DNA of 64,000 bases from Nereocystis luetkeana (Eukaryota > Sar > Phaeophyceae > Laminariales > Laminariaceae): NCBI GenBank assembly GCA_031213475.1, contig JARUPZ010000009.1, positions 5,923,601 to 5,987,600 of the forward strand, given 5' to 3'. Below, in pieces: positions 1 through 35,654 of this stretch. The notes beneath the pieces were generated by a model that saw only the letters and a program-made list of their open reading frames with translations, was not told the DNA's origin and ran no database searches. Made by a program: the position numbers and the translations under genes. Position 1 is the stretch's first letter; each line of letters begins with the position of its first letter.

Positions 1-1382
1 AGGTTTAGTTGCCAAATTCTGTGCCAAACCGAATCGTCTGAATTCTAAACCTGAAGAGTACTGGGCTCCCGGGCGTCGTGAGTAGGGCACACACGTACCC
101 CGCGACAATAATAATAGTTAGTGTCGCTACTGTAGTACTTACAGAGGTTTCGTGTACCGGTATGAATGTCTTGCACTCTGAGAAGTGCAGGTTAATGTGG
201 CACGGGCGCACAGAACTCACTAAAGTTATTTGCGGGTGATAGTATGTAGTATATCCGTACCCCGGGCGCTGTGACACGGGGGCACACAGGCAACAGACGT
301 TTCGTGTACGGATACAAAAATTCTATATACCTTACGGGAGTCACGGTCACCGGGATGGGTGACGTACAAAACATAAAAGTTCAACACGTGGCAAGGGAGA
401 GGTACTCATATGGTTGAGATATTTAGGGTTCCTCGCATAAAGAACTCCCCATGATAAAAGAATGAGAATCTAACGATCTTCAAAACCTCTGAAAGTTTTT
501 GTCGATGGACAAATCCCATTTCCGACTAGCAGGGGTACATTTGATGCCACCACAAAAACAGACAGCGATGCGTGCGACGAGTTTAGGCTCGTCTCGGCAG
601 AAATATGCTGCCTCAATCCGCATTATGTGGGGTACTACCGGTAAAACTACCCTGGGTACTCGTACGACATAACAAAAACCTGCATACTTCGGTTCTAAGC
701 TGAAACGCGTCGAACAACACGAGAAGAGGCTGCCGGTTTCAAGCACACTTGTTCGTTGCCCGTAAGACACTCGTGAAACATCTGCAACGATCAGCAATTT
801 TGAGACTGCCATCGAAAACTACAAATCATCGCCATAAGTTTCGGAGTCATCGCAAAAATCAGTCGTACAGTCCCCTCGATTGCCACACAGTATACAAGGA
901 AGTGAGTGCAAGCACGAATGGATTGTTAACCGAGGTAAAACAAAAGAAGACGCAAGCCTCATGTAAAAGAGTAGCTCCATTTTACAGTGTGCGTCTGGGT
1001 CAGGTCGGGTACTCTGGCGACAGTTGCGTTTGAATGTGTGATATGATTTGTCTATTTACGAAAATAATGCAATAGGTCTGAGCGTGAATGGCGGGCACTC
1101 AACGTGTCGAACATTGCCTTACACGCATCGCGACGCGACAGTAGTCTGACCCCCTGTGTTAGCATATACATCACGCCTGAGTTTCAAAACCTGTTAGATA
1201 TATCTGAAGGGTACCTGGTACAACGTTTCACTACAGACGATGTTATCCCAAACGAATGCCGTCTAAAACACTTTAGTAGACCTATACGTGCCCGTGTTTC
1301 GAACCTAAGACTTAAATAATCGCATATAATATCAAATGATCGATAGAAGCTTCGACGTTAGAATGAAACTTACGTTCCTCAC
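1..1382. other. Stretch before the Cys-rich gene exons, no convincing gene
   Basis: No motif-bearing coding sequence is recognisable. Two loosely similar segments, around 90-165 and 245-325, share a CGTACCCC block followed later by a GTTTCGTGTAC block, which suggests an old local duplication. The terminal exon and 3' end of the minus-strand cysteine-rich gene should lie here, but I could not place them securely. Confidence 0.4.
480..812 (-). CDS. Unassigned 110-codon open frame, possible terminal exon
   Basis: This minus-strand frame is open for 110 codons and lies downstream of the cysteine-rich exons on the same strand. It has scattered cysteines, including a CC pair and a CFCGG...C segment near the end. 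A potential acceptor near 591 would be followed by two bases completing a codon, which fits the phase-1 pattern of the upstream exons, and the frame then stops. The cysteine spacing does not match the repeated module. It could be the last exon of that gene or chance open frame; I cannot tell which. Confidence 0.18.
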   Translation of the reverse strand: MAVSKLLIVADVSRVSYGQRTSVLETGSLFSCCSTRFSLEPKYAGFCYVVRVPRVVLPVVPHIMRIEAAYFCRDEPKLVARIAVCFCGGIKCTPASRKWDLSIDKNFQRF

Positions 1383-1463
1383 CACAGTCCTCGGGGTCGG
1401 TGGTACAAACCCCGTTTGGGCAGCACACTGAATCTCCAAAGCAGTGGGTGTCATCCTTGCATT
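1383..1463 (-). CDS. Exon 'E' of the cysteine-module gene
   Basis: This exon encodes ECKDDTHCFGDSVCCPNGVC followed by TTDPEDCG. The acceptor is GTAACAG at 1464-1470 and the donor is GTGAGG at 1377-1382. A second, stronger-looking donor, GTAAGT at 1368-1373, lies nine bases downstream and would also end in phase 1, adding three residues (GEE), so alternative donor use is possible without changing frame. Confidence 0.75.
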
Positions 1464-4400
1464 CTGTTACAAACCGTGTGTTGCACGGAGTATGGGACAA
1501 CCACACGATAACGGCAGTTGATGTGAAAACAAATGGGTCGTACCGGTGTTGAATGCGCAATTTCCTGCCTGTTTTATTTGAACATCCTGCACGAACTTGG
1601 GCGACAGTGGTGCTGCTGTACACGAAATCGCTTTTGTATATATTTGGGTTTGGTGTGACACATTAAGAGGGCAGCTGCGGTGTATATTGCAACCCAATTT
1701 TGTTGTGCGAACATATTTCCTAAGCCAAGCATCCACTGCTCTAAGACGTCGCAGTTGATAACCATTTGACGTTTATTCTCGACTAGTTTTCCTTGGACCA
1801 CGGCAATCAAAATTACTGCGAAGCTAACATGTTCCTCACCACAGTCCTCGAGTACTTCGACACAAGAACCGTCAGGGCAAAAAACCATACCGTCGGCACA
1901 GCCGATGGGGTCATCGTCGCAGACTGTCGCAAAACGTGAAGTGAGACACGGCGCGGACGGCAATCGTCGTGGAAACGGGCGCGTTACTCACGTGGCAAAG
2001 GCGAACACGTTTTTCAGCGAAGGATTTGAAGAACATTGGAATTGCTTGAGGTGTGACATCGGACATAGGTCACTCATAAGTGTTATCACATGTATTCAAA
2101 TCACTATAAGGAGGACATCGTGGACGTGCGAAGCCTCACAAGCAATACCGTCGTGCAGTATGCGCATCTAAATCTGACCAAAGGGATAACCATGTCTGAC
2201 GTGGTAACTGTCGCGCGTGCAAGAGATACAACGACCGTGCGTACCACTGTGACAGATGCACAGACGAATTTTGACCCACTTCTATATATCATGTGCCTGG
2301 TACGCCCTACTAAGACCGACGGCGAGCCATCACGTACCCCCGCGTTCACAAGTATCTTTTCTGCAGGGTATGAGCATCATCATCTTATTAGGCAGTTGCC
2401 CAGGCTAAATCTAACCCTAGTGCAGTTGGTAGTTGTATGTGGTGTCACCGTTGGCAAGGGAGACTGGTATCGTAAAAGTCGACGTCGACCAATAAACGTG
2501 TAAATGTTTTATTGTTTGGACGGGAGCAGGGGCGTTCACACGCAGAACCATTCGGTTTGTGAATTGTCTAACAGCAGCCAGCGCTTCAAAATCAGGAAGG
2601 GGGTAGTGGAGTACACACATTACATCGCCAATCTAGAACGAGCAAATAAATTATCCTCGAGGAGTTGAGCACTCGTTGCGAACACGGTCAAAACCTGCCC
2701 TGAGAAAAAAATATTTCGGCAACGGTGTCACCTGAGGAACTGGTATACAACAGGCCGAATCTCTCTTTTTTGAGACCGGTGTATATCTGGGTCGTCTCAA
2801 GTACAGGGAATCCAAACCTACATAAAGGTTATCATTTTACAAAGCAGTTGTAACAACACGTCATCGACGTTTTGGTCTCGAAAAATCCAGCGGCAGCACA
2901 ACAACTGGTCGGAAAGCATAACCCGACACCATCCACGACCGCAACGTGGGAATCTAAGCTCGACTTCTCACCACACATCGTGAGTTTGTCGACGCAAGAT
3001 CCGTCTGGACAACACACATCGCCACCAGGGCAGTGCTTGTCTTTCTTGCAACCTGTCGGAAACATCGTGGGAAACCATCCGGAAACGACTGTTTCAGCAA
3101 TCCTATTGAATCTAATAGATTCGTGGATATATTATGTACCTTCAACGTATACGATAGGTTTCACACGCACCAACATATTTACGATGGCAGGGTCACAAGA
3201 ATTGGACGTGCAACAAGAGGGGGAAACGCCTCACTCCAGTTTCCAAGTCTCGTTGTCTCCGATGTGACATGTCATATATGACGATGCTGCAACCCCAACT
3301 ACCCGGTCCACCCAGACGTACTTGGCGATAGGTGCAGAAACTTCACCAAGATCGGCAGGGTACGGAAATTATTTACAGGTTTACTTCGGAACGGAATGCA
3401 TGCCAAGCGTTCAGTCTGGCGCTTAGCGACATTCCCACCATACCAGCAGCTCCATGTATCGACCTTATCCTGAATATCGCACGCACCATACTCCATCCGA
3501 AATAAAATCAGCACGATATGTCCACACCTACATCCCCAACAAGGTACGACCATAATTATTGTAGCACATTAAGTGAACTTGAACGGATTTGTGTAATATG
3601 TATAGTCCTACAACTGGACTCGACAGAACAACAACTGGAGTGTTTGTCAAGTTCCGATGAGAAAATGTTCACATTGGTGGGCTTTCAATTTGCTTAGCTA
3701 CGTTTTCCGAGTTTGACATGTGTACTTTCCGTGCTGTATTCGATCAGCTGGAACGTGGTCGTCTTGGTGCGGGTAAGAGATATCGACTAGCTACGAGATG
3801 CATATATCCTACAAAGCAATTATTCAAAGCTATTCCCGTTTAACGTTTTTTTAAACGACCGGCAACCGACACGACATTCCCACGGAATTGCGTCAGTGCT
3901 TCACACATCTATGCATTCCACAAAAAAACATGGCTGTCGTCGCGCAAACCAGTACGGAAGGTCATGGCCGCGCGCTAGCAGTCGCAACATTGAGTCAAAG
4001 AGAAAATATGTTTTGGGTGACACTGTGAAGAGACTCAGTCGATGCACCCGGAACAAGATTCAATAGGAATACCCTCATCGAAGCGAGCATTAGTGTAATC
4101 AGCTATACTATGTTGAACTCTAACCATGCCCCCCTCTCTTCTATGTACCTCTTCGTGCGCCGTCATCCAAGACCTGTTTCCAACTGCAACACGTAGTCAA
4201 ACATAGTATGTCAAGGTAGAAGGGGGCTTGATGTTCCGTCACACCTTTGCAGAAGCCGTTTTTGCACTTTCTCTTGTAGCAGTCACAGCCGCTCTCCGTA
4301 CAACACGGCATCAGGGGGGCAAGAGCGTTTTTCGCTGAGGTGGAAAAACAAAAACAGGTCACAGCGGTACATGCGTTGTGCGTACGTTCTTGTCAAATCG

Positions 4401-5772
4401 AATCTCGCGGGCGTTTCGGTGACTAAGTCGCTTGTGCTGTGGCTATTTACACTGCTGGTCATGAAGATGGCTAGTTATTCAAACAAGGTATTGATTGGCC
4501 TGTTAACCATTGTAGCACTACCTACCAAAAATCGACCTAGCACCCAATTGTCACCGGCTATACACTATTAATTGCGACGCAGATATGCGAACCATTTTGT
4601 TACGGTGTATATGTTGCCTTCATGCAGATCATCATAATTGCCCTCAACACATGTTAGGGTTATATCGGAACCGAAAAACGTTTCGAGAAATGGATCAATT
4701 GGAAACAATTGGGAAAAGCACGTGTGACCATTTAACGCTTCAACCGATATGTGTTGTGTTGCAAGGTATTCTGACAAAACGTTGGCAACAATTGATGCAC
4801 CCACGTCAATTCAGATAACCGATAGTTGTTCGTGATATTAGGTCGGAAACACTCTCTAGGCCGATAGTTTCCATCGCTCTCTAAACGGCTTCCATGACTC
4901 CAGCGTTCCAGCAATCAGGTCAAACACTGGGCTGGTTGTAAGATATTACACAGGGCATACGTAGCGATTCAGGAGTCAAACGCCCCAGGTATATAGTTAG
5001 TCACTGTTTCATACTTTTCGCTTGGGGTGCAGTCGATTGGATCGTGCAGTAGGCGACATATAAACTCTACCAGGCTACACTCCGGGGTGACACCTTCAAC
5101 CTGTGCGTGACACTGTAAAGTCCGCCGGCATCTCAAGCCGATGTAAGGTGAGGGTACGCGATGGCTGGGCCACCCGCTCGAGGGATTCGGTGCTCCAACT
5201 TATAAAAGGAGGTGTACACATAAGTTGAGGGCGTATCGTAGCCAAGAAACCATGGGGGATACACCTAACTCAATCGAAACTCTCAGACAGAATATATTTA
5301 CCGTTTTACACGAGAAGTTCTGGCTACCTACAAGATGGTTTTCCGAAATTTAGCGTGGTCATTACTCTCGCGTCCGAGTCATCACCTCAATGTATTATGT
5401 CACCCTGGACAAGCTTTCAATGTACCAACACGATCAAGTCCAACCCCTGTCGGAAATACGATAAAGTGGAAAATCTCCCAGAAAAGGTATAACTACCCTA
5501 TAATGTTGGTTTTCGCTCGTTGAGTCCACGTGACCGGCCGCGATAACGGAGAAATGTGCACCAACCATACATGCGACGGCTTCCGAACCTAGTTTGCGTT
5601 ATTAGTTGGTATTTAATGAGCAGGTAGACACGCGTTTCCGCGCTGTTCTGATATGTAGTGTGTGTGGCATGCACCCCGCCCCGTATCTCTTGAAGTTACT
5701 TACTGACACAGAATGAAGGGTCGTGCAGCGTCCCGCAGCAGGCGGTGTCGCAGTCATCGTTCACTGTACAAC
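1383..5772 (-). CDS. Multi-exon secreted-type protein of repeated WAP-like cysteine modules, partial
   Basis: Five exons are seen on the minus strand: 5704-5772, 4245-4334, 2972-3052, 1840-1923 and 1383-1463. Each starts just after an AG acceptor, ends at GT (GTAAGT, GTGTGA, GTGAGA, GTGAGG, GTGAGG), and has a length divisible by three (69, 90, 81, 84, 81 bp). All introns are phase 1, so every junction codon joins cleanly. The last three modules share C-x5-[C or C-x1-C]...CCP[DN]GxC-x6-CG, with variations. The C-x5-C-x5-CC spacing resembles the second half of a WAP four-disulfide core; this is similarity of spacing, not a family assignment. Cysteine density suggests an extracellular, disulfide-bonded protein. 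The signal-peptide exon and terminal exon were not found. Introns are 376 to 1369 bp. No breaks are visible in the five exons. Confidence 0.72.
1840..1923 (-). CDS. Exon 'D' of the cysteine-module gene
   Basis: This exon encodes VCDDDPIGCADGMVFCPDGS followed by CVEVLEDCG. It is 84 bp and flanked by TTTTGCGACAG and GTGAGG. In this module the first Cys of the CC pair is replaced (VFC instead of VCC) while one extra residue separates the first two cysteines. It therefore has an odd cysteine count compared with modules C and E and may pair differently. Confidence 0.75.
2972..3052 (-). CDS. Exon 'C' of the cysteine-module gene
   Basis: This exon encodes CKKDKHCPGGDVCCPDGSCV followed by DKLTMCG, with a leading Gly codon completed from the previous exon (g + gt). 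The acceptor is CCGACAG and the donor is GTGAGA. It is the closest match to module E in both length and cysteine spacing. Confidence 0.78.
4245..4334 (-). CDS. Exon 'B' of the cysteine-module gene
   Basis: This exon encodes KNALAPLMPCCTESGCDCYK followed by RKCKNGFCK. It is 90 bp. The acceptor is excellent: a long pyrimidine tract ends in CCACCTCAG, with a possible branch site TGTGAC upstream. The donor is GTGTGA. The junction with exon A gives a Thr codon (a + cg). Its cysteine order (CC, then CxC, then C, C) differs from modules C-E, so it may be a distinct domain or a diverged copy. Confidence 0.68.
5704..5772 (-). CDS. Exon 'A' of the cysteine-module gene, most 5' exon found
   Basis: This exon encodes CTVNDDCDTACCGTLHDPSF followed by CV, with a preceding Gly codon split by the upstream intron. 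The donor is a consensus GTAAGT at 5698-5703. The upstream sequence contains a CTGAC branch-like motif and a pyrimidine-rich stretch ending in AAATCAG. The frame stays open upstream and reads as hydrophobic (RLTLLVSATLLCF), which could be mistaken for a signal peptide, but it has no ATG before an in-frame stop, so I treat it as intron. Confidence 0.68.
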
Positions 5773-7330
5773 CTGATTTGAAGCACAACAGGGTTGCAGA
5801 CACCAACAGTGTCAGGCGGACGGGGAGTGCGCGGGATTTACGTTATAGTATCGACCCGGGAAGCTTGAGTGTCGATTTAGAGTCATTCGCACCTTTCTAG
5901 AAGCATAGATAACATAGTTATGTCAAAAATAATATAGGGATTGCTGATACCTTCCTAGCTGGGTAAATGAGCAAACAAATTTTCATGAATACCCTAAGAA
6001 GAAGATCAAGGATCGGTAATGTCTAGACCCCCTGTTTAAACACAACAGGTCACCGACGAAGTTTGTCGTATGTTCCATACTAACCTCCGTCGTGTGTCAT
6101 CATGTTTTGGATGTAACTGGTAGGTCGTCCATATGTCGTTTCCGTTCAGGCTTGAGCGGCAACAAAAATATTTTTTTACGGTCCCAGAATACCTTGCTGG
6201 CCTTTGCAACCCCCTCCCCAGTACTCGAGATTAGGAAGTACACGAACAAACCCGGGGTATGTTAGTTCCTAAACAACAGCGTATACGTCCTCATGCCGGA
6301 TGTAATTACTGCCAACAGTAACAGCAACTGTCACAAATTCCAAGCACGGCAGTACAGGCGGTACGGAAGGAATACACGCTCACATGATATAAAAACAATG
6401 TATGGGGCTAATTGTCATCTTGCATATTTTGTGCATGTCCGAAGAATTTTCGAGCATCTGTCTTCAGCCTAGCGTTTGATCAGGGCGGTAAACTGCATGT
6501 GTCTTGTCTACCTGCCCAATCTGGCCCTTCTTAAGTTCGGCACTATCGTTGACGAGTCCAACGGTGATTACATCCCAACTCAAACTTATCGCAAATAAAT
6601 GTCACTGTTCCCTGTTTAGTAAAAAACGCGATTCGCGTCGCATGTCACTTTTGCGCTGAAGGCCTGAACTCCGTACTTGATAAAGTACAACAAACCCATC
6701 AAGTATATATTCAATCAAGTCTATATGATGGGACCACGTGAAAAAACAGGTAGGTACTAGAAGTGATGACAAGGTGTATTGTTTCTATACCCGTATAGAA
6801 ACATATGAGCTACGCGGCCATTCAAACATTCTGAACGAATTTTAGACCAGGAAACTACTTTGAAGCGTAAGGTACATCGAAATTTTTCGTGAGAGGTCCA
6901 AACTTACCATCGCCTTCATCTTGCGCTTATGCTGAGAGGGCAAAGAAGAGCACGACGCACGCACCCTTGGCATAATGGGCGAAGCGCATCGTCGAGACCT
7001 TGATCGCGAAAACGGTTGTACGGTGCACGTGTGCGGGTAGTGAACAAGCAGAGAGATGATGCGTGAGTGAGTATCCAGGGCAAATCGATATACTGATACC
7101 ATCTACTATAATATATAGGACTCGTATATGTTGACCGTGACAACCTTCTATGGGACACTGAGATATATGCAGAACAACCCGCGTGAGGGTATCACGCTCA
7201 TTCTACTCCACCAGTAGATTAACGCAAACAATATCAGTGCAGACTCGACTCAAGGGGACCCGCAAAACGAGTTTTCGACACCTTCCGTCAAACCGTTCAA
7301 CTTGGGTACTATCCACAGGGGGAGGGGTGG
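5773..7330. other. Gene-poor stretch upstream of the Cys-rich exons
   Basis: The missing first exon and the promoter of the minus-strand gene are expected here. A minus-strand ATG AAG GCG ATG directly followed by GTAAGT (about 6910-6924) resembles a very short first coding exon, but its phase does not fit exon A directly, so another exon would be needed between them. A cysteine-containing minus-strand run near 6310-6365 (CDSCCYC) has no clear splice borders. Nothing else is supported. Confidence 0.3.
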
Positions 7331-7370
7331 AGGGAGGGGGGGGGGGGGGTACCTGGTATCGCCCCCCCCC
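7331..7370. repeat. G-run and C-run flanking TACCTGGTA
   Basis: A long run of G is followed by TACCTGGTATCG and then a run of C, so the two runs could pair around the TACCTGGTA core or form a G-quadruplex on one strand. A similar pair of C and G runs occurs at about 9021-9050. Confidence 0.7.
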
Positions 7371-8032
7371 ACCCACGCATGTTCAATATATATATAACCG
7401 AAGCCATGGGACGGTAGGTAGCCGTCTTCCGCCCTGCTGAATTCTGAATGCCTTCCATCATACTCTGATACCTCAGTGAGGCGGGACTTGCTGGTCTGTA
7501 GGCTACAGCTTCATCTGGCAGCGGAGTAGCGATAACCGCAGGAGCATTGGGTGATCCCAATCCAAAGGGTCTATGAGTTATTTCGAAGGTTGGACGAGAA
7601 GGCCCCGACAATCTATGAGATAGGCAGGCTTGGCTTGATAAGCATTGGCTGAAAAAGGTCGAGGGAACGGCTTTGGCGACAGCTCGGCCCTCGATGCTGT
7701 ACTTGTTGCACAACATGAGCTCTCGGAATGGGATCCAATGTGATTGCCATATTGTTGCGGATCACCAAGAAAATCATGATACAGCTACGGTAGTATTACG
7801 GAGGACCACAGTAGCTAAGACCTACGGTACACTCAAAAACCTATCTAGTTTCCCTTTTTGCACGGGCAATATATAGTATTGTATACTATCGCCCCCCGTA
7901 CCAGCATCTTAATGTTGTTTGGTATAGCTGCCGTAGCGTTAGTATGGGTCCTGCCGACCCAATTATAGACAGCAGCTTGAGACCCTTCCGGTCTGTCCGG
8001 TAATTCAAGGACTGCTTCAAACATGTGTGCCG
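7371..8032. other. No recognised feature
   Basis: A 135-codon minus-strand open frame overlaps 7309-7716 but resembles no family I know and runs into the homopolymer tract. Nothing else stands out. Confidence 0.3.
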
Positions 8033-8129
8033 TTAACCCTTTTAGAACCGCAGTCCCGTTCCGGGGACAATCCAGTCAAATTTCAAGTAGTTTTGTCCCC
8101 AAACGGGACTGCGGTTCTAAAGGGGTTAA
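8033..8129. mobile_element. 89-bp TTAA-flanked MITE, piggyBac type
   Basis: The element 8037-8125 is bounded by TTAA on both sides (8033-8036 and 8126-8129). It starts CCCTTTTAGAACCGCAGTCC, and its right end is nearly the reverse complement of this (CCCCTTTAGAACCGCAGTCC on the minus strand). The inverted arms are about 34 bp with a roughly 22-bp loop. TTAA target duplication and CCC...GGG termini are hallmarks of piggyBac superfamily elements. No transposase is present, so it is non-autonomous. Being so palindromic, it should form a strong hairpin. Confidence 0.75.
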
Positions 8130-10040
8130 AAAGTAATCTCATTTCTGGACAGAGTGGTATATATTACATGCTACCTGGTATATGCACCAGGTGCCCGACA
8201 TACCCTGAAGCATATATGAAAAAGCATTGTATTGCCTTTTGCGCTCCATCCGGCTGAGTTGCAGCTGCATTCTTGCTTGTTTAGGTGGATCCCGGCACCG
8301 ATGCAGCTGTAGTGCTTCCGCAGCTACAGTAATCCTACGGGATTGTAAGCGGCATGGAGTGTCGAGTGCATTCCGTTGTTCCGTCGGCACCAGTCGGTAC
8401 AGAGTACGAGGTCGCCAAGCTTGGGCTCATGAAACGATGATTTCTTTATTTTTTTTGGTGGTGGATGATATACGATGGAGGGCATATCTGGATAGATAAA
8501 TCAACAGGCACAAGGAAAATTTCGCACCTGTGTATGCCTCACCAACGTGAATCTACCCGCCAAACAAACCGCTGACGGCGCCTGGTGTCAGAAGTATGAG
8601 AGCCTCCCCTGCCTATCCGCTACCTTGCGTCTGTATTCGTCTAGAAGTCACTGTCTGAAAAGCCGTGAAAGTATTTACTGGTAACTCACATGCACCTGTC
8701 ATCAGGTCTAGATTGGCCGTAAAATGGAATATTGCGCTGAAATGCACGTACTTGTCCAATACGCATACCTGTGAAACTACACGAAGAGGTAGTGGTTAAT
8801 CACGCAGCAAACCAAAAAACATTTACACTAATAGCGGGTGTAAATAAATGGGCCTAAGTTTATCGTAAGCCGGGTATCATATTCCAGGTAATCGAGAAGG
8901 GGGAACTCCGAGTACAAGTACGTAAGCCTTTTCAGTACCTCAGTAAGGTCACACAAATCCTACTACGGTACATATAAAAAAAACGAGTAAACAAAAAGTA
9001 CAAGTAAAAACATATATATCGACCCCCCCGGGGCCCAGGGGGGGGGGGGTTGTTGGTGTATGATATTCCACTCTGCAGGCACCCTTGCCCGACTCCATGT
9101 GTCATACCAGGTTTGTATTTTCATAGAGCAGTCGCTCGAACGAATACGGGTCAAGCGCAGTATTTAACAATGCTGCACGTGTGTCAAATGTGCAATATTT
9201 CCCAGCGAGTCATGCGCACGGGCAAGGTGCGAATATAATAACACAGCCAGCGTGGGGCACGGGCTCGTAGGTACGCCGACGACGACATCACTACTGGGAA
9301 GTGGTTGGCACTTTCCCACAACCGTTATCATGCAGGCCACAGCGGAATATTATGCAGGTCCATTTTTTACACAGATATGTGGGGCAAATTCCACGATGCT
9401 CAGTCGTCACCAGCTGACAAAAACGTTCAACGCTAGGATAATAACAAGAGGTAGCACATCACGATGTTGCTATTGAACGATGATTCAATTGGCATGCCTT
9501 AGCTACAGTTCATACTGGGGTCTGGGAGAGCAAATGCTATTGTGAATAATAGAGCCATGTCCTATATATATTCAATAACAGGCGATGATGAGAGAGATAC
9601 GGTATTGATGCGGTTCAGGGCGCTCGTATGTACAAAAAAGAGGCCAAAACCACCGGGGTGTTTATATTCGGGTACCATGAACTATATATAGTTTGTACAA
9701 CTGAAGCTCCGGGGTGTTATACTTGGTGTTTTCATTCGAACGTGCAGCACACTCTTTGCTACTCCTCTGTTATTAGGCAGTTGCCTCCGTTTATTTTATG
9801 CTTTTTTTTGTGTCAGCCTAAATCGTGTATGACTGGCCAGGTTTCATCGAGAACCAGTTAGATACTCGAAACAGGTACAAACTAATAAACGCCAGGAGCT
9901 ACCCGGTACCTGGAATACTATTTCGTTCACTCGGTCTAGCTTCCTCACCAAGTCACAAAGGACATATATCCGTACCTACATCTGCGTATGTATGCCTCTT
10001 TTTTTTCTCATCCCATTGAATATCTTCGCACAACTTCTTC
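8130..10040. other. No recognised gene
   Basis: Only short open frames occur, none with recognisable motifs. The stretch contains two C/G homopolymer runs near 9021-9050 and two or three TA-rich patches. It appears to be non-coding intergenic or intronic DNA. Confidence 0.35.
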
Positions 10041-10140
10041 TCTCTCTCCTTCCAACTCGTAACTCAGATCCGGGGTCACATAGCAGGCTCTTTTCCCCCC
10101 TTCCCACTACGGTACGTGCCTTCATTTTTATCGCGAGCTG
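10041..10140 (+). repeat. Partial copy of dispersed repeat R3
   Basis: The block GTACGTGCCTTCATTTTT, preceded by a C-rich run and a GGTCAC segment, matches the repeats at 29752-29907 and 39242-39395. Only the middle of the repeat is recognisable here. Confidence 0.45.
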
Positions 10141-10501
10141 ATTTCAGGCGTTTCTTCCCTCGTCCACTCGCATCGAATTGTGCCTACCCACGCTGCAAGG
10201 CCCCTCTCAACAATTGAATCATTTTTTGTTTTTGCAAATAGAGTCAAAGTCCGACCCGCCCTTTGGTTGATAATATTGTGGGCGTGCTCATACGTACGTA
10301 TAGCAGCTGCAGCTAAAAAAAAAGGTGCCGTGCCCCCCCCTGCCTGCTTCGGCCTGCCCCGTCCTTGGGGTGGGCCGAGGAAGTCTGCCAGGACCTGCAG
10401 CGGTCTAGCGACAGTCACACGAACATCGAGCTTCGGACTACGTAGGTAGGGAACCTTGCGCGGTCCGGCTGGTGGCCTGCTCGCTTTAAGGACCGCGTGG
10501 G

Positions 10502-12010
10502 GTGGTGGTGATGTTTTTTCTTCTTAACCCCGACGCCGAGGAGTTCATCCCTCAGGCGGGACGGGTGCACCACCACAGCAGAGAGCGCTACGTGGGCAGC
10601 CGGTGGAGTGGAGAGGCTGCCCACAGCGTGGGTATGCATGCACGACAGGAAGGATGGGATTGTCGGCGTGGGTTGGGACGGCTGCACCAAGCCAACGTAA
10701 ACAAAGGCGCGTACCGGGCTACGAAATGGAGAGCCACCTTCGCCATAGTAGAGAAAAAAAAGAAAAAGAAAAAGAAAAAAAGAAGGCGGGGACGAGCCTC
10801 TCGTCGGCTGGTAAAGAAAGCAGCACGCAAGGCTCGTAAGAGACAGAAGGAGGCACATGTGACGGTAGTGACCTACAATGTGCGCACCCTGACTGTAAAG
10901 GGGGAGAACGGGTACGGACATGACGAGCGTATACTGGCGAAGGGACGGCAACTCGGCTGTGACTTCATTGGCCTGCAAGAAACTCGGAGGTCCGGCAGCA
11001 CGACGTTCCGTGCGGCAGGGTATCGCGTTTTCTGTTCAGGACAGGAAACAACAGCCACCAGGCAAGGGCTGTACGGAGTAGGCCAAGCTGTCAAGGAATC
11101 GTTGTGCAGTAAGTCTGTGTATACTCATCAGTTCGTTGACGAGCGGCTAATGTCTATGCGCTTTGAGCTGGCTGGCAAATGCGAGGCAGTCAATTTCGTT
11201 GTTGCGTATGCTCCAACTGATTGTACCAAGGACGCCGAACTGAAACTTATTTTCTGGCAGAAGCTGGTGTACTTGATGAAAAAAATCCCGACGAAAGAGT
11301 GTCTGTTTGTACTGATGGATGCCAACGCGCGAACTGGACAGAGGAAGGAAGGGTGCGGTGATGATGCAAGCAGAGTGCGGGGAGCGTATGGACGTGATGT
11401 TCGTCACGATAATGGCAGACGCCTCATGTCGTTCGCCACCAATTGCAAGTTAGCTCTCACCAACACGTTTTTCAGCACGCGCAAGGGTGGGATATCGCAT
11501 ACTCACAACGGCACCGGCCCGAATGACCGGAAGCGGATTGACTACATCCTAACCCGTCAAGTCCATCGACCTAGAGTACAAGATGCGAAAGTCGTCCCAC
11601 AGCCTCCTGCCCCAGCTAAGGCTGACTCAGACCACAACATCTTGTATATCAAAGTCCGACTCGGTGGTCATTTTGCGCCCAACAGACAAATACGCACACC
11701 GACGAAACGCCGAGAGTTCGACAGGCAGATTTTTATGTCCGATGGAAATGGTCGTGAACGAGTAGTCTCCAGGGTCATCTCCACTCTCAACCAGGCTATC
11801 CAGCCCCGTAATACGTCTGGTATGGTTAAGATTTTCACAACGGCTGTTATTGATGCGGTCGGAAAAGAGGTACCACCCCCTGCACGTCGCCACCGCAGAC
11901 ATGGATGGTGTGAGTCTGCCGAAACCTTGGCCGCATTCATGCCAGCATGGACAGCGAGGGAGAATGGACGACAACTCTTGCGTGCCCACCCCCGGGACAG
12001 AACCGCGTGA
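10502..12010 (+). pseudogene. LINE endonuclease region, APE/EEP type
   Basis: This 502-residue frame begins with a poorly conserved leader and a Lys/Arg-rich stretch (residues 85-115). The exonuclease-endonuclease-phosphatase domain follows at about 119-388. Catalytic motifs are intact: TYNVRTL (Asn126), GLQETR (Glu160), YAPTD (236-240), LMDANA (Asp273, Asn275), RIDYIL and SDH (376-378). This enzyme nicks target DNA to prime reverse transcription. The frame ends at TGA 12008-12010, after which the same frame continues, so the stop is a disabling mutation, not the natural end. The first ATG at 10502 may lie inside the 5' untranslated region; the true start is uncertain. Confidence 0.85.
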
Positions 12011-12046
12011 AAGACCCTGAGATCTGCGTGTGCGAACCTGCTGAAA

Positions 12047-12526
12047 GTGATTGCCTCAGGACTGCATGCGTACTTCGAAGCGTACCTTGCCGAAATCGAA
12101 CGACTCCTAGCGAAGAGCGACCAAAGAGGCTTTTACAAGCACCTTAAGAGTACGGTAGGATTGGAAGGGACTCAAGCGAGGAGCGAACAGTTCATTAGGG
12201 ACGAGGATGGCACGATCCTACGGGATAAGGTGCGAATTCGTGAAAGATGGGCGGGGTTTTACCACAAACTCTTGAACACGAAGTCGCTGAAACTCGCTCC
12301 CACGATCATCGACCTCTTGCCACCGCGACCGCCTAAACTGTCGCTTGAAGATGAACCATCCATAGACGAGATGACAGAAGCACTTAAGGGGATGTCGAAT
12401 TGGAAAGCTCTCGGGCCAGATGGTCTCCCGGTCGAACTCCTAAAGATCGACCACCCGGCATTCGCCCAGCGCTTTCACAACATCCTTGTCAATGTTTGGT
12501 TAACAGGAGAAGTCCCTCAGCAATGA
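12047..12526 (+). pseudogene. LINE linker and start of reverse transcriptase
   Basis: It is in the same frame as the endonuclease and reads through a charged linker into the RT start. The LSLEDEPSIDEMTEALKGM segment precedes NWKALGPDGLPVELLK, the classic LINE 'K(A/S)PGPDG(I/L)P' finger motif. The frame ends at TGA in VPQQ-stop-WKDA, where active relatives usually have a sense codon, and then continues in frame as [20 protein letters not shown]. This is the second of the element's two stops. Confidence 0.85.
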
Positions 12527-12625
12527 TGGAAAGATGCGATTATCAAGGTCCTTCACAAAAAGAAGGATCGAACTGACAGCAACAACTATAGAGGGATTTC
12601 GCTTGTTGCCCACGCAGGCAAAGCG

Positions 12626-13801
12626 TTGTTGAAAATCGTCGCGTCCCGCCTCAGCAACTACTGCGAGACCGAGGAACTACTCCCCGAGGAACAGTGCGGC
12701 TTCCGCCCCGCACGATCAACGATTGATATGTTGTTCGTCGTGTGCCGGCTGCAAGAGCTCGGACGACAGAGGAAAATCCCCTTATACGTGTGCTTCATCG
12801 ATCTGCAGAAAGCGTACGACTCTGTCGACCGAGAGCTGTTATGGAAGGTACTCACACCCTTTGGCGTACCAACCAAGATGCTGGGAATTATCCGTAATTT
12901 CCACGATGGCATGCGGGCTCGCGTGCGTACTGATGACGGCGAGCTCTCGGAATGGTTTGATGTCACGCAGGGGCTGCGGCAAGGCTGTGTACTATCACCG
13001 TTACTGTTCAACGTGTTCTTCGCTGCTGCGTTACACTTCGTAATAGTACGCTTCAGCCAAGACGAAGCCATTGTAAGGGATGTGGTCCAACTCTGTGAAG
13101 CTGGAGTAGTTCGAACAGAGAAGGAGGCGCCATTGTCGTGCGTGCGAAGGTCTGTATGGGGCATGTTGTACGCCGATGATGTAGGAATTGTCTCGAAGTC
13201 GGCTGAAGGCCTCGCAAAAATGGTGACAGTCATCGTGACTGTCTTCGAAGCAGCAGGCCTCACGGTGTCGGAAAAGAAGACTGAGACAATGGTCCTACAA
13301 ACACCAGACCAGACAACCCTCGCACCACCGCTCGTCATCGAAGCGGCAGGTCAGAGGTATAAGCAGACGACCCAGTTCTTATACCTAGGCGGCGTTATCC
13401 ACGAATACGCTGCGCTCTCGCTCGAAATCGACCGACAGATCCGCCTCATGCGAGCATGCCTCAAACGGTTCGGCCTGGAGTTGTATGATAGGACGACCGC
13501 CCCCCTTAGCCTTAAAGTCCGAATGCTGAAGGCCGAGGTGATTGAGACCCTGCTGTACGGGCGTGTGACGTGTACCCTCAGAGCGGAACACTTTGCAAAG
13601 CTTCGAACATCTCACCACCAAGTCCTGCTGCGAGTCATTGGCTTCCAGCGCCGACTTCATACTGACCATGCCACCCTCTCGTACGCGAAGGCCCTCAAGA
13701 TGACACGTTGCGAGAGCATCGAAACGACCATTCGTAAACGGCGGCTCTTCTTGCGGGGGGCGTGGCACGGCAAAGCAAGGAGCGATTACCCAGTCGGGTA
13801 A
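12626..13801 (+). pseudogene. LINE reverse transcriptase core
   Basis: This 391-residue frame contains RT motifs in order: ECGFRP-like [10 protein letters not shown] (23-32), [13 protein letters not shown] (57-69), [15 protein letters not shown] (115-129) and the catalytic YADD (182-185), followed by [12 protein letters not shown] and the [16 protein letters not shown] thumb segment. All key Asp residues are present. The last part ([11 protein letters not shown]) is out of frame relative to relatives. A shift near 13755-13765 moves the true C-terminus ([10 protein letters not shown]) into the next frame. Confidence 0.9.
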
Positions 13802-14247
13802 TGTTCGGGACGATAACTGGTGGGGAGAACCTGAGACCAGGCGGACAGTGTAAGACTTGGCATAGATGCATAGTCGAAGACCTTAGGGAGTGCCGAGCCA
13901 CCGAAGGGTCAACGGAAGTTGCCCCCTTGGTGTTTGGAGTTGAGACCGCGTTGTGGTCCACTGCAGCCAAAACTGCGGGGAAGTGTTACCGGGGGGTCCT
14001 TGAAGCAGCCGAACGGTTCATGGTGAGGTGGCACGAAGCTGAGGCTGAGATGAGTAGGCAGCGCCGTGCCTCCGCCGAGGATGGTGCCCAAGGGAACGGG
14101 GGGGGAGGGGGCAACAGCAGAAGTGGCAGAAAGCCCGACCGAGGGAATGCGGAGAGGGGGGGGAACAGGAGGGGTAGGAGGGAAACGGCGGTAGACGAAA
14201 GTAGGAACGAGATGGCAGACAGGGTATCAAGGCACCCAGTCGACTAG
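13762..14247 (+). pseudogene. LINE C-terminal region in a shifted frame
   Basis: This frame continues the LINE product with [11 protein letters not shown], then the region equivalent to the W-E-D-L-x-E-F segment of the copy at 47 kb, then a Gly/Arg-rich tail. The 47-kb LINE has LPKRGYVWGD / MFGEMVGGKGYSGG at the same place, which identifies this as the genuine C-terminus. The tail is low in complexity and ends with RHPVD. Confidence 0.75.
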
Positions 14248-14911
14248 AAAGTAGAACATGACCATACTACTAGTTAGTGCTACAAACCGGTGTAGCTGGT
14301 TCGAACGTGATCTTCCCTGGTCTTCTCTCCTTGTTTTTTTTTTTTTTTTCTTTCTTGCGCTGATTTTCATGTTTTTTTTTTCTCTTCCTCTTCCTTTTCT
14401 GATTGATAAGCCGTACTGAAGGAGCCGTGTGGCGTGGTTGGAAGACGAACCTGCTCTGCTCGTTTCGTATTGTCTGACGCCAAGGGGCTGGGCATAGTTG
14501 ACGAACGCAGGGCAGAGACGGCAGTCTGGGTAGCAAGGTACCAGGCGGATTAGCAAGGAGAACCTGGCTATACTACTCGTACCACAAGCTGCTGCCGTCA
14601 CGTGGAAGGTGCTTTGGGCTTTGGTCTGCCTGTTATTTCCCCTTTGTTATTTTTCCTTGTTACTTTTTCCCTTGGTTCTTTGTCTTACTCTGTTTACAAG
14701 CAGTGGTGTTTTTTCCATTTTGTTTTTTTTTTCTTCTTTTCTCGAGCTCGTTCTTTTTCAAGTGTTGGCCACATCGCCTGCGGGGGGGGGGGCAAGACAG
14801 ATTGTTTCTCTTAGATTTTGCTTTCATTTTTCTTCTTTTTCTCTTTCGATTTGTCTACCTTGTTTTTGCTTTCTCTTTGATTGTTTCTTTTCGTTTCACT
14901 ATTTCATAGAT

Positions 14912-15130
14912 TGCGTATGTCGTGCCTGTCGTATCTAGTATGATGACAGGGCTTTGCATTGCCCACTGCAGTGCACACTGCATGCGTGGCAACGTAGTAT
15001 CTCTGTGGTGTAGCTTTGTGACCACATAACTTGTATATCTTCTAGGATTGAAGAATCGGCACGGACACTGGTTGTGCTGGATGTTTGACGGGTAGAATGA
15101 ACGGTTTAATGTGAAGAACACACGCACAAG
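14912..15130 (+). repeat. Dispersed repeat R1, copy 1
   Basis: This segment starts near CGTGCCTGTCGTATC and ends near GGTTTAATGTGAAGAACAC. It is closely similar to 16857-17055 and more distantly to 29440-29690. A shared core reads GGCACGGACACTGGTTGTGC followed by TGGATG and a CGGGTAGA block. It has no coding capacity. It abuts the 3' end of the LINE. Confidence 0.75.
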
Positions 15131-16320
15131 GTATATATATACACTTCCGTTCCCCTCGTTGCCTCGGCAAGGAATGCTGCGAGGCATGCCCTATCAGGCT
15201 AATAGCGAGTGGGGTAGGTCTTTCTGGCGGGTGTAAGGCCGGACTCACCCTCAAGGAGTGATACCTTCTTGCTGCTGCCTGTGGCCGCGAGGCTCAGGCG
15301 GCAGTAGAGTTGGGTCGTACGTGGTGCGTCAGGCACGGAGACCTACGATTCGCGCGTCTTTTTAGGCAGCTGCGGCAGAGCAGCAATGCTCAATCGGGGG
15401 GTCCGTGCGCGGAGGCAGGCGCCACCACAGGCCACACTACGGCACAGTCTATTGCGCCGGTAGGAGGCTGGATTCGACGACGAGGGAGGAGGGAGACTGA
15501 GCGTCGACGTGCGGGGAAGAGACGGATTGACCTCCCCCTGCGCGAGACTTTTTATTTCCCAGATCAGAACCGCAAGTGCGAGGAGCATTTTGTTTTTCAG
15601 GATGACGGAGAAAGGGAAACGACTGGAAGGGAATGGCAACGAGTGCACGCGCAAAGGAGCGGGTGGATTGGGCCAAGGCGATGATGCGGCCATGAAGAGC
15701 GGCAGGAAGACGGTGCATGAAGACCCATGATTTGCGCGAACACTATCATCACGAGAGAAGCAGTCATAGTTTGTTTTTCCCTGGTATTGTTTTTCACGAG
15801 GCAGAATAGTATCTACCGGTACTCGTCACTGGTCTTCGTAGTTTAACGAGTTGTATACCCTTCAAGGGGAATGACCTACGCAAATATCAGGGACGTGGAA
15901 TCATAACTGAGCTGCACCTTTTTGTGTCAGACAGTCCAGGAAGAGATGGCGATCGTTGATATTCGTGTGGTAGTAAGGTTCGATTGCTCCTTTTTTCACT
16001 GCATATCCGCGAGTCTTCACTCTGACAGCACTCCAGATAGCAGGCAGGTGTGTTCCTCTTTCGTTTTCACGACTACCGTGCGTTTCGTACGGTGCAGGCA
16101 GCACTTCAGACAGCATCCGCTGTAGTCAGCAGCCACGAGTTGGTTAGTGGTGGGAACGGGGGTACTCTTCTATATTATAGTTGAGAGGATATACCCGCGG
16201 CCATGTTAGTTCAGTTTTGCACATTGGTTTTATCTTGTGTGCGCTTTTTCCGTCTCGTGTATTTTGAGGCAGCCGAATTTTCGATTTTTTTTTTGTTTTT
16301 CGGATCTTCCTAGGGCTCCA
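15131..16320. other. Mixed sequence, one GC-rich open frame, no recognised gene
   Basis: A 124-codon plus-strand frame (15310-15684) is Arg/Gly-rich (IRRRGRRETERRRAGKRRID), similar in composition to LINE tails but not matched to anything specific. The rest has no feature I can support. Confidence 0.3.
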
Positions 16321-16367
16321 GCACCTTTGTGTGACCACGGACTCCTTCGTCAGAGAGTTAATGTGAG

Positions 16368-16434
<67 letters not shown>
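16368..16434. repeat. (AAC)n followed by (AT)n microsatellite
   Basis: An uninterrupted AAC tract (about 16 units) runs directly into an AT tract (about 9 units). It is preceded by GAGTTAATGTGAG, the sequence that also precedes AAC tracts in the 46-kb repeats, so the tract is attached to a repeat family and is not placed at random. Confidence 0.9.
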
Positions 16435-16435
<1 letters not shown>

Positions 16436-16856
16436 CTTGGGGTTTCTGTCAAAATCAGGTATAACTGGCCACGGTTCGGCCAAAATCAGTTACATTCTAA
16501 AAACAAGACCGAAAACGCCCGAGGAGCCTTGCTGTTGGCCAGGCTGACATCGAAACTGATTATAGCTCGAACAGGCCAAGGTGTGCAATGTTTTTTTTCT
16601 ATTCTGTCCAAGTTTCAACTGATTTTATCAAACTTTGAACCAACCAGTCAAAGAGGCCATACGTGCACTGTTTTCTCTCTCCATATGCGTCTGCCCTCCC
16701 ACGGTCGAATTTTTTTTGTACTAACGTATTTACGCTGTATGTACTCGTACGTTGTACGTGAAAGTACGTATTTACGTATGCATACATGCTTTCTCTAATG
16801 GTTTCACTTTTCTTCGTTGGGGTGGGCGACGTGCTGCAGTTGCCAATAGTTGTTGT

Positions 16857-17055
16857 GATGTGTACATGCCATTGCATTGCCCACTGCAGTGCTTACTGCA
16901 TACGTGGCTACCAGGTACGTAGTAGTATCTCTGTGGCGTAGCTTTGTGACCACAAAACGTGAATCTCTTCTAGGATTGAAGAATCTGCACGGACACTGGT
17001 TGTGCTGGATGTCGACGGGTTGAAAGAACGGTTTGTGAAGAACACACACACTCTA
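16857..17055 (+). repeat. Dispersed repeat R1, copy 2
   Basis: This is a close relative of copy 1: CCACTGCAGTG, ATCTCTGTGG, TAGCTTTGTGACCACA, TTCTAGGATTGAAGAATC and GTTGTGCTGGATG are shared. It has the TACCAGGTA motif as a small insertion (16909-16917) not present in copy 1. Confidence 0.75.
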
Positions 17056-17124
17056 GAGTCTGCTGTGTTGTTTTCTATGTTCACAGCGGTCTACACAGCA
17101 ACATGGTATTTATCTGCAGCACCC

Positions 17125-17850
17125 CGCGTAGAGGTGGGCTCAGGTTTGGTAGTTCAAGACTAATTCGTGCCGAGCTCGCTGTTCCGCGAGGACGGTCTTG
17201 AGGATTTCAAGCTGTCAAGGGGACGGCGCCAGACTAAATACCAACCTCGCCCCCCCCTTGTCGTGGCAAAAAGAACGGGAGCCATTAATAGGGACTCTCT
17301 GCGGGTCCAAGTGGAGTCCGTGGCATCGAAACACTCAAGGAGACACAACGATTTAGATTTTGGTGTGGAATGCATATTTTTTACCGGACTGTCATTAACA
17401 GAACACCGCTCGTGGTGCGCAGTTTTCTTGGTTTTAGTATATATATACCGGATTTTGTCTGAAACGGATCAGGTATAACTGACTTAAATTTAGCATTCAC
17501 CCTATATATACACATACCTAGGTAGGACGATTCCACGTTTTGTTCTTCAGAATGTACGATGTTCTTATGTTTCCAAACGGAGTTTTTTTACTCCAAGGCG
17601 TGGACAAGCACTGCAGTTCGTCCGCCCCGGTCCGCGTTGAGGGGGTCTCAGGTTTGGTACTGAAAGACAACCTCATACTTATCAGGCCCTTCCCCGAGGA
17701 TGGTCGAAAAGCGCGGTAAAGCTGGCAACGCGAAGTGGTGTGCCAGAATATATTTTCTTGGCGCTCTCATCGTGGCCAAACAAAACGAAGCCTTGTGACC
17801 TCTGCAGGTACAAATGGAGCCAGTGGTACCCATACTCGTGTCCGTGATGT
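17125..17850 (+). repeat. Diverged tandem duplication, about 510-bp period
   Basis: Segments 17125-17330 and 17635-17850 share several blocks in the same order: a (G)AGG...GGGCTCAGGTTTGGTA block, a GACAACCT-like block, a CATCGTGGCCAAA-like block and a TGCGGGTCCAAGTGGAG-like block. They are heavily diverged, so the duplication is old. A CGGATTTTGTCTGAAACGG segment between them also recurs around 16437-16470 and 18210-18235 in variant form. Confidence 0.5.
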
Positions 17851-17913
17851 TCAGGCGTTCAGGCGCGTTCCGGTTGTAGCGAATCTTCGTGGGGCATTGG
17901 GTGGATCTTAACG

Positions 17914-18164
17914 AGGACTGTTTTTCAGTTATTCTCGGCATTTATTCCCCCGAAATTTCGGTATTTTCTAGTGGGAAAAATACAGGAAATATATACCGAA
18001 ATATCGGGAAAATACCGAAAAAAACTGAAAAACACTCATCGCTAGCCCTGTTATCTATGTGGTTTTCGGCATTTTCCCGATGTTTCGGTATTCCATGTTT
18101 TTTTCCTAAAAGGATATACCGCATTTTCGGCGAAATGCCAAAAAAAGACCTGAAAAACAGCCCC
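17914..18164. mobile_element. 251-bp foldback MITE with 5-bp target duplication
   Basis: The ends are inverted repeats, GGACTGTTTTTCAG at the left and GGGGCTGTTTTTCAG (minus strand) at the right, followed on each side by GGCATTT-like blocks. TAACG flanks both ends (17909-17913 and 18165-18169) and looks like a 5-bp target-site duplication. The interior is a series of TTTCGGTATTTT-type blocks in both orientations, so the element folds back on itself. There is no transposase. The superfamily is not assigned. Confidence 0.65.
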
Positions 18165-18469
18165 TAACGTTTGTGGAGGACGTTTGATACTGGAACTGGT
18201 ATATAGCTGATTTCGACCGATATGGATCAGGTATAGCAAAATTTGGCAACAAACAGGCTTTTTTAGTATAGTTTAGGTAATGTCCTTTGTATCTACCTCT
18301 GATGCCTTTGTTTTCGATGTTCTTCTGTTTGCGGAGGCGCATTGTAAACACTCGGCGGTAATGCGAGCACCACCATCACTAATTATTGCAGAAAAACTTG
18401 GTGATATTTCCGTGTCGCAATACTTTTTTGAGTGAAGACCCAGATGTTTGGAGGGTTTTGATTCATCTC

Positions 18470-19340: not shown

Positions 19341-19879
19341 AGAGCGGGCGGCTGCACCATGCAGCCCAGGACGTCACGAACAAGGGCAGAAGGGAAGGAA
19401 GGAAGAGGGGGGGGGGGGGGGCAGCCGAACTGATAGAGTTGTGGACGAATGCACAAACCAACAATAGATCGGGTGGCTAGGTATCGGTCCGCCACTATCG
19501 CTCTTACACAGTCTGTTGCCGGAATATCTGCCTCCTTCGTGTTGCTTCGTTTGTGCAGCAGATATCTGTCCTTGCTGAGTACGTACGAGGTATCCTTTAC
19601 GTGTAGCAGCCATAATATTGAACTCTTTGCGTAACTGTGAGGTATGTTTTCTTTCTTGCGTATTTTACGTTTTTATGTATTTCGGTTTTTTTCTGGTGTT
19701 GCTTGTGTTGTCGTCTTATCGTACCCGATACACTGGCATTTCACTCGATTAACACTCCAATATGCGATTTTTAATTATTATTATCCCCCTTGCCATTCGA
19801 CCATGTTCAGCATGAATTTATTGTTTTTTGGTATTATTCTGACTCACAGTCTCCGAGCGCAGGATCCATATATCTCTAG

Positions 19880-19951
19880 AATAATAGAGGATCAGTACGG
19901 ACTCTAATTCTTTTTTTGCAGCTTGGTAAAAAGGACGATTCAATGTGAAGA

Positions 19952-20015
<64 letters not shown>

Positions 20016-20020
20016 AACAA
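19880..20020 (+). repeat. R1 tail with (AAC)n tract
   Basis: The end of an R1 copy (GATCAGTACGGACTC, then GACGATTCAATGTGAAGA) runs straight into about 22 AAC units (19953-20020). R1 copies at 15.1 and 17.0 kb end at the equivalent place in ACACAC-type sequence instead. Confidence 0.65.
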
Positions 20021-28100: not shown

Positions 28101-28125
28101 CTTACACAGCCGACAGGAGATATCT

Positions 28126-35650: not shown

Positions 35651-35654
35651 TAAG

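What the first reader, a model, noticed from the sequence alone, without database searches (positions are those of the whole stretch)
1383..5772. Cysteine-rich gene built from single-exon, phase-1 modules
Five successive exons each encode one cysteine module, are multiples of three (69-90 bp) and start and end in phase 1. Every acceptor/donor pair and junction codon was read directly and they agree. This is the classical architecture for exon shuffling, duplication or frame-safe exon skipping. Modules range from clear siblings (C, D, E) to divergent ones (A, B). Repeat-per-exon genes with symmetric phases are known in brown algae for LRR- and TPR-containing genes; a WAP-like cysteine version would be a different module set. 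Extracellular role is inferred from cysteine content only.
Basis: partly seen in the sequence, partly recalled or inferred. Interest (0 to 1): 0.78.

Follow-up and report, generated by a model that had tools for sequence, protein, structure and literature searches.

The report
Secreted cysteine-repeat gene, one-exon modules
The window holds the first six exons of a gene, probably from a brown alga, for a secreted protein built of small cysteine-rich beads, one bead per exon; the gene is repeated six times nearby, and this copy carries a stop codon near its start.

Summary
The five exons lie on the minus strand with the stated edges, all phase 1-1 (69, 90, 81, 84, 81 nt). A missed sixth exon (6989-6908) encodes a signal peptide and also ends in phase 1; more 81-nt module exons lie left of the window. 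Paralogues on the same contig keep the exons: 0 indels in 487 exon nt against 79-92 gap openings in introns, divergence 8-12% against 18-24%, dN/dS about 0.4. So the family is coding. One paralogue gives a complete 454-aa model: signal peptide, 15 modules, short terminal exon. The window copy is the last of six copies of a ~113.6-kb tandem array. Its signal-peptide exon has an in-frame stop (open in the other five), and an inversion has turned the terminal exons of its lineage: probably a pseudogene. X/Y modules multiplied as exon pairs. Splice-site loss removes modules without touching the frame; one module has lost its acceptor in four of the six array copies but not in the other two. No Pfam or NCBIfam family passes its cut-off and PDB matches are weak; the framework is knottin/hevein/half-WAP-like. 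Function (extracellular binding or inhibition) is inferred.

The parts
6908..6989 (-). exon 1: start codon and signal peptide (MRFAHYAKGACVVLFFALSA...AQDEGD), ends in phase 1; codon 21 (6929-6927) is an in-frame stop in this copy, open in the five other array copies and in two older paralogues
5704..5772 (-). exon A, 69 nt, phase 1-1, CTVNDDCDTACCGTLHDPSFCV
   Evidence: conserved in m1 and m2
4245..4334 (-). exon B, 90 nt, phase 1-1, KNALAPLMPCCTESGCDCYKRKCKNGFCK
   Evidence: conserved in m1, m2 and the far paralogue
2972..3052 (-). exon C, 81 nt, phase 1-1, six-Cys module CKKDKHCPGGDVCCPDGSCVDKLTMC
1840..1923 (-). exon D, 84 nt, phase 1-1, module with one Cys of the CC pair replaced by Phe
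1383..1463 (-). exon E, 81 nt, phase 1-1, six-Cys module CKDDTHCFGDSVCCPNGVCTTDPEDC; the gene continues to the left of the window (contig C9 5923367 down to 5920936: X1, Y1, X2, Y2, X4, Y4)
1..39000 (.). part of the sixth and last copy of a ~113.6-kb tandem array (five other copies on contig C9); tested by alignment of the left part and by a probe at 38001-39000; the right edge lies between 39000 and 60401

Best explanation
The exons belong to a gene for a secreted repeat protein. A signal-peptide exon with a phase-1 donor is followed by phase-1 symmetric exons, most of them coding one small disulfide-rich bead of about 27 residues; neighbouring beads are joined by a single residue, and a short terminal exon ends the protein. 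Because every module exon is symmetric, beads can be added, lost or left out without a frameshift. The tail has grown by tandem duplication of X/Y exon pairs and shrinks when a module loses a splice site and decays. Whole genes were then duplicated (m2, m1, k) and the k gene was amplified inside a ~113.6-kb block to six copies. The window's copy is the edge copy, with a stop in its signal peptide and, like its lineage, terminal exons inverted onto the other strand; it is most likely a pseudogene of a family that is otherwise under purifying selection. Most likely function, inferred only: a multivalent extracellular binder or inhibitor in the cell wall or apoplast, with the number and kind of beads setting avidity or specificity. 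Shown from sequence: exon edges, phases, conservation, duplication, decay. By eye: signal peptide. Inferred: disulfide pairing, fold, splicing, function, pseudogene status.
For: Exon edges and phases. Of 41 module hits of a home-made profile on the genes' own strand, 34 have AG and GT at the module edge in phase 1; 6 of the 7 without also carry a stop, lost Cys or truncation. In the six array copies, module X2 has lost its acceptor in four (k1, k3, k4, k5) and keeps it in two (k2, k6), with the same exon length of 81 nt in all. Signal-peptide exon open in k1-k5, m1, m2. Exons 0 indels in 487 nt versus 79-92 gap openings in introns (three comparisons); divergence 8.4-11.5% versus 18-24% and dN/dS 0.37-0.43, Fisher p 0.002-0.008 (five comparisons). 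Terminal exon with a stop at the same place in m1 and m2. Pair duplication: 1381-bp offset, 79% over 2123 bp in m1; the 10 Y modules in the tree form one clade (support 0.98). Array: six copies with two independent probes, 0-246 differences per 19.7 kb. Inversion in k1 and k6 relative to m1 and m2. Window copy versus k5: exons 7/487, introns 74/5105, the same rate.
Against: No transcript data; the exon chain is inferred. Among the six array copies the exons with intact edges in k6 vary slightly less than the other sites (8/973 versus 204/13868, p 0.12; with the dead exons added 8/1216, p 0.02), so constraint on the k copies is not excluded. The stop could be an assembly error. dN/dS near 0.4 is only moderate constraint. 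Fold and function have no significant match. The X clade has poor support (0.12). Five of the 34 modules with intact splice edges have also lost a cysteine (D in three genes, k6 Y2, m1 Y5). How the k copies would end their protein is unresolved.
Confidence: 0.75

Rival explanations
1. A diversity-generating receptor-like system: alternative splicing of the symmetric bead exons yields many secreted variants, as proposed for LRR exons of brown algal ROCO genes.
For: Same one-repeat-per-exon, one-phase design as ROCO LRR exons (72 bp, phase 2, several splice variants; PMC11378527, passages). Module number and kind differ between paralogues, and one module differs in splice-site state between near-identical array copies.
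Against: No transcripts could be examined. The differences between paralogues are explained by duplication and decay.
Confidence: 0.25
2. The whole cluster on this contig is a decaying relic; neither the k array nor m1 and m2 make a working protein, and the array is amplified for other reasons.
For: Stop in the window copy, inverted terminal exons in k1 and k6, dead modules in k6 and m1, window copy versus k5 unconstrained.
Against: Purifying selection between m1, m2 and k, open signal-peptide exon in seven of eight copies, terminal exon open with the same stop in m1 and m2.
Confidence: 0.15
3. The modules are WAP-type protease inhibitors.
For: C-x5-C-x5-CC resembles the second half of a WAP domain; weak hits of the C+E peptide to WAP (E 0.037) and of the module profile to omwaprin (E 0.57).
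Against: Only six of the eight WAP cysteines (eight: recalled), below Pfam's cut-off, no WAP hit for the five-module peptide or the 454-aa model; weak EB, conotoxin-family and LDL-receptor hits score as well or better.
Confidence: 0.1
4. The modules are hevein-like chitin-binding or antimicrobial beads.
For: The weak structural matches of the folded C module include three entries of hevein-like antimicrobial peptides and hevein-32 (4 of 9 rows, all with E above 1; class labels recalled).
Against: The matches are not significant, and the aromatic sugar-binding residues of hevein (recalled) have no counterpart after the CC pair in modules C and E.
Confidence: 0.1
5. Chance: unrelated AG/GT pairs around cysteine codons.
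For: AG and GT are frequent; each single exon is short (inspection, no test).
Against: 0 of 40 simulations have the cysteine pattern and the edges are conserved in paralogues with diverged introns.
Confidence: 0.01

Closest known systems
Brown algal ROCO genes with one LRR per exon (and NB-ARC-TPR genes with TPR exons)
   Same: One repeat per exon, exons of one size and phase, tandem duplication of exons, probably the same group of organisms (PMC11378527, passages; NB-ARC-TPR only as cited there and in PMC12879055, passages).
   Different: There LRR (23 aa, 72 bp, phase 2) attached to a GTPase; here a secreted chain of six-Cys beads (27 aa, mostly 81 bp, phase 1) with no other domain found.
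Class 1-1 extracellular modules of animals (signal-peptide exon ending in phase 1, then symmetric 1-1 exons)
   Same: Same phase logic: phase-1 intron just after the signal peptide, modules on 1-1 exons (PMC7259759, passages).
   Different: Probably not an animal gene; no Pfam family passes its cut-off for the module.
WAP four-disulfide core domain
   Same: C-x5-C-x5-CC stretch.
   Different: Six instead of eight cysteines (eight: recalled); score below the curated cut-off (14.8 against 20.8 bits).
Knottins and hevein-like peptides (C-C-CC-C-C framework)
   Same: Order and spacing of six cysteines (framework recalled); weak fold matches to Ac-AMP2, an MCoTI-II graft, ProTx-II and hevein-32.
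   Different: No match with E below 1; here beads are in long tandem chains on separate exons.
EB module, DUF7107, Dickkopf_N, conotoxin I-superfamily (Pfam)
   Same: Weak scores of the C+E peptide (EB E 0.015, DUF7107 0.022, Dickkopf_N 1.3) and of four modules of the far paralogue (conotoxin I-superfamily E 0.0062).
   Different: All below Pfam's cut-offs; the five-module peptide and the 454-aa model give none of them.

Membership tests
Repeat-per-exon genes with symmetric phase | each repeat on one exon of a length divisible by three, same phase on both sides | tested here: met
   34 of 41 module hits in k6, m1, m2 and the far paralogue have AG and GT at the module edges in phase 1
Repeat-per-exon genes with symmetric phase | tandem duplication of exons within the gene | tested here: met
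   1381-bp offset with 79% identity over 2123 bp in m1; Y clade support 0.98, X clade only 0.12
Repeat-per-exon genes with symmetric phase | alternative splicing or skipping of repeat exons | not testable with these tools
   no transcripts at hand
Secreted class 1-1 modular protein | signal peptide exon that ends in phase 1 | tested here: met
   82-nt exon, open in k1-k5, m1, m2; stop in the window copy k6; signal peptide judged by eye, no predictor run
WAP | eight cysteines, score over Pfam's cut-off | tested here: not met
   six cysteines; WAP 14.8 bits against 20.8; no WAP hit for the 454-aa model
Hevein-like chitin-binding | aromatic sugar-binding residues | tested here: not met
   modules C and E have no aromatic residue after the CC pair; looked at by eye, the feature itself is recalled
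Knottin (inhibitor cystine knot) | disulfides 1-4, 2-5, 3-6 forming a knot | not testable with these tools
   spacing fits (recalled framework); the model of module C has pLDDT 77.5 and pTM 0.34 from three sequences, no match with E below 1
Brown algal ROCO or NB-ARC-TPR | LRR or TPR repeats with a GTPase or NB-ARC domain | tested here: not met
   the m1 model gives no Pfam domain (one chance hit, E 8)

The most novel reading that the evidence does not exclude
A further exon-shuffled repertoire in brown algae, outside the cell: a signal peptide plus a variable chain of phase-1 six-cysteine exons whose number and type change by exon-pair birth and death, gene duplication and amplification of a 113-kb block, and may also be varied by exon skipping. 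Near-identical array copies that differ in the splice site of one module would be this process caught in the act. It would be a secreted counterpart to the intracellular LRR and TPR exon arrays, built on a module family that the libraries searched here do not hold.
Probability: 0.3. Interest if true: 0.75.

Novelty: new variant of a known kind. Interest (0 to 1): 0.55.

Why it matters
Repeat-per-exon genes of brown algae have been proposed as a basis for a diverse immune repertoire; the cases that I saw described carry LRR or TPR repeats. A secreted family with the phase-1 logic known from animal extracellular proteins would show the same design for extracellular proteins in an independent multicellular lineage. 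Dead modules beside live ones, and one module whose acceptor is lost in four of six near-identical copies, make the frame-safety idea directly testable: each lost splice site should simply remove one bead from the mRNA.

Tried and rejected
Not pursued: conserved stretches in introns at window 4835-4716, 4069-3920 and 3447-3243 (high identity to m1; no coding test was made). Set aside: the module at contig position 5915464 in k6, because its 5' end coincides with the inversion breakpoint; the corresponding module in m2 (5142572) lies beyond the terminal exon and was left unassigned. A conserved exon was looked for in about 3 kb beyond the gene in k1 and m1; none was obvious. Pfam and NCBIfam scans of the complete model gave nothing but one chance Pfam hit (E 8). 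Scans of viral contigs and prokaryote genomes with an 81-aa query of three modules gave no relative (viral: no pattern match; genomes: 45 pattern matches, none confirmed). Eight paper searches on brown algal exon shuffling, cysteine-rich genes, WAP, knottins and repeat exons listed no paper whose title or abstract start describes this family; I saw listings, and passages of four papers, no whole text. Rows dropped before the 41-module count: weak or chance hits (k6 5934210, m1 5199342, m2 5151597, far 11050510), hits on the opposite strand (k6 5915728 and 5916099, m2 5147688), the terminal exon (m1 5192333, m2 5144709), and k1 as a whole, which largely repeats k6. k1-k5 are therefore not in the 41; their splice edges are, where X2 lacks its acceptor in k1, k3, k4 and k5. 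The profile was built from 31 module sequences of the same genes, picked by a cysteine pattern without regard to splice sites. Exons A and B are not found by that profile and are not in the 41. The list (39 of 39) was chosen by its splice edges and is no test. m1 X3 and Y3 were left out of the tree.
Full report
What was checked. The five exons are present on the minus strand with exactly the edges implied by the finding: A 5772-5704, B 4334-4245, C 3052-2972, D 1923-1840, E 1463-1383. Lengths are 69, 90, 81, 84 and 81 nt; each is preceded by AG, followed by GT and open in the phase 1-1 frame. A relaxed six-cysteine pattern, without splice sites, is found 2 times in the window and 0 times in 40 order-1 Markov simulations.

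Where it lies. The window is contig C9 5923601-5987600 of a 465-Mb genome of 1987 contigs. A search for the EsV-1-7 repeat listed 150 matches (150 of 1713 candidates were scored), all over the family's cut-off, and none in 14 control genomes. That family is expanded in brown algae although patchy elsewhere (PMC7457493, one passage). So the organism is probably a brown alga; no name is available.

The gene is larger than the finding. Upstream, window 6989-6908 is an 82-nt exon with a start codon, a charged start, a hydrophobic core and an A-x-A end, followed by a GT donor in phase 1. It is a signal peptide by inspection; no predictor was run. Left of the window, six 81-nt module exons with intact edges follow (X1, Y1, X2, Y2, X4, Y4 at 5923367 to 5920936); two dead ones lie among them and a third after them.

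Paralogues. A DNA pattern from exon E occurs six times on C9, about 113.6 kb apart (the first interval is 123.7 kb), and an independent probe at window 38-39 kb gives six array copies too. A probe at 60.4-61.4 kb gives only the window copy plus repeats of at most 91% identity. Over 19.7 kb, k4 and k5 are identical, k3 differs from them by 6, k1 by 16-18 from k3-k5, k2 by 45-55 from the other four, and the window copy k6 by 211-246 substitutions from all. The spacings differ from copy to copy, which speaks against a simple assembly duplication. Older paralogues lie at 5142-5155 kb (m2) and 5192-5209 kb (m1), a distant one at 11035-11060 kb, and weak exon-B-like matches at C9 4947 kb (E 0.003) and on C39 (E 0.007).

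Is it coding? Between k6, m1 and m2, the signal-peptide exon plus A-E (487 nt) show no indel, whereas the introns show 79, 92 and 85 gap openings in about 5.5 kb. Over the five comparisons that involve m1 or m2, exon divergence is 8.4-11.5%, intron divergence 18-24%, and dN/dS 0.37-0.43 with Fisher p 0.002-0.008. The comparisons are not independent. This is moderate purifying selection on a real coding sequence.

The complete model. In m1 and m2 the module row ends with Z (72 nt) and a terminal exon that ends in TGA at the same place. The m1 chain signal peptide-A-B-C-D-E-X1-Y1-X2-Y2-X4-Y4-X6-Y6-X7-Z-terminal has 454 residues and 15 modules; no hydrophobic membrane segment was noticed, but no predictor was run. 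Y5, which keeps AG and GT but has lost a cysteine and has a weak donor, was left out of that model.

Birth and death of exons. X and Y modules alternate. Within m1 a 2123-bp stretch repeats itself at an offset of 1381 bp with 79% identity. In a tree of 28 modules all 10 Y modules form one clade (0.98); the 12 X modules also fall together but with support of only 0.12; C and E cluster by position across the genes. Of 41 module hits on the genes' own strand, 34 keep both splice edges in phase 1: 9 of 13 in k6, 14 of 17 in m1, 7 of 7 in m2 and 4 of 4 in the fetched part of the far paralogue (one acceptor there is 3 nt upstream). Of the seven others, six also carry an in-frame stop, a lost cysteine or a truncation; m1 X5 lost only its acceptor. 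Conversely, D in all three genes, k6 Y2 and m1 Y5 have lost a cysteine but keep both edges (5 of 34).

A module lost recently. The exon edges of all six array copies were compared. The signal-peptide donor and the edges of A-E, X1, Y1, Y2, X4 and Y4 are intact in all six, and X3, Y3 and X5 lack an acceptor in all six. X2 has its acceptor in k2 and k6 but not in k1, k3, k4 and k5, while its length stays 81 nt in all. Such a loss would leave the frame untouched if X2 is skipped. This is what frame-safe exon loss predicts, but without transcripts it is not proof.

The window copy is probably dead. Codon 21 of its signal-peptide exon is a stop; the frame is open in k1-k5, m1 and m2. In k1 and k6 about 2.8 kb with Z and the terminal exon are inverted relative to m1 and m2, and all six copies align over this region; the inverted terminal exon of k6 has lost its acceptor. 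Window copy and k5 differ equally in exons (7/487) and introns (74/5105), with 1 synonymous and 5 replacement changes besides the stop. Among all six copies, exons with intact edges in k6 vary at 8 of 973 sites and other sites at 204 of 13868 (p 0.12; with dead exons 8 of 1216, p 0.02). So constraint on the array copies is not shown, nor excluded. How k1-k5 would end their protein is unresolved.

What the module is. No Pfam family passes its cut-off: the C+E peptide has weak hits to EB, DUF7107, WAP and Dickkopf_N while a five-module peptide has none, and a four-module peptide of the far paralogue has a weak hit to a conotoxin family (E 0.0062). NCBIfam has none for the m1 model. A profile of 27 modules finds in the PDB only four weak matches: a VLDL receptor piece (E 0.19), a toxin (0.5), omwaprin (0.57) and an LRP1 piece (0.96). 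A model of module C from three window modules has mean pLDDT 77.5 and pTM 0.34; Foldseek gives 9 rows, none below E 1; six of them are hevein-like peptides or knottins (class labels recalled). The cysteine order C-C-CC-C-C fits knottins and hevein (recalled), and half of a WAP domain. Membership in none of them is claimed.

Comparison with known systems. ROCO genes of brown algae carry one LRR per 72-bp phase-2 exon, with several splice variants reported (PMC11378527, passages). Secreted modular proteins of animals use a phase-1 intron after the signal peptide and 1-1 exons (PMC7259759, passages). The present gene combines, probably, the first organism group with the second phase logic, on a module that matches no family over its cut-off in the libraries searched.

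Verdict. The particular copy in the window is probably a pseudogene at the edge of a recent amplification. Function and alternative splicing remain open.

Noticed in passing
window 10490-14247 (+): Non-LTR retrotransposon remains: endonuclease (Exo_endo_phos, E 1.7e-7) and reverse transcriptase (RVT_1, E 4e-35) in successive open frames.
   Followed up: partly
window 47275-48117 (-): Open frame with a weak reverse-transcriptase match below Pfam's cut-off.
   Followed up: no
window 29138-29195: Short interstitial array of an ACCCTA-type, telomere-like repeat.
   Followed up: no
window 46181-46486: Two 153-bp tandem copies, 98% alike.
   Followed up: no
window 38086-38627: Dispersed repeat of about 540 bp; the search had 7029 first-look candidates and scored 40, the long matches outside the array being 86-87% identical.
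   Followed up: no
contig C9 5147688 (+), locus L051: A complete Y-type module on the opposite strand inside the m2 gene, perhaps a second local inversion in this family.
   Followed up: no
contig C9 11035-11060 kb: A distant paralogue of the gene; order and spacing of the matches suggest that a block of three modules is duplicated at an offset of about 8 kb (not aligned).
   Followed up: partly
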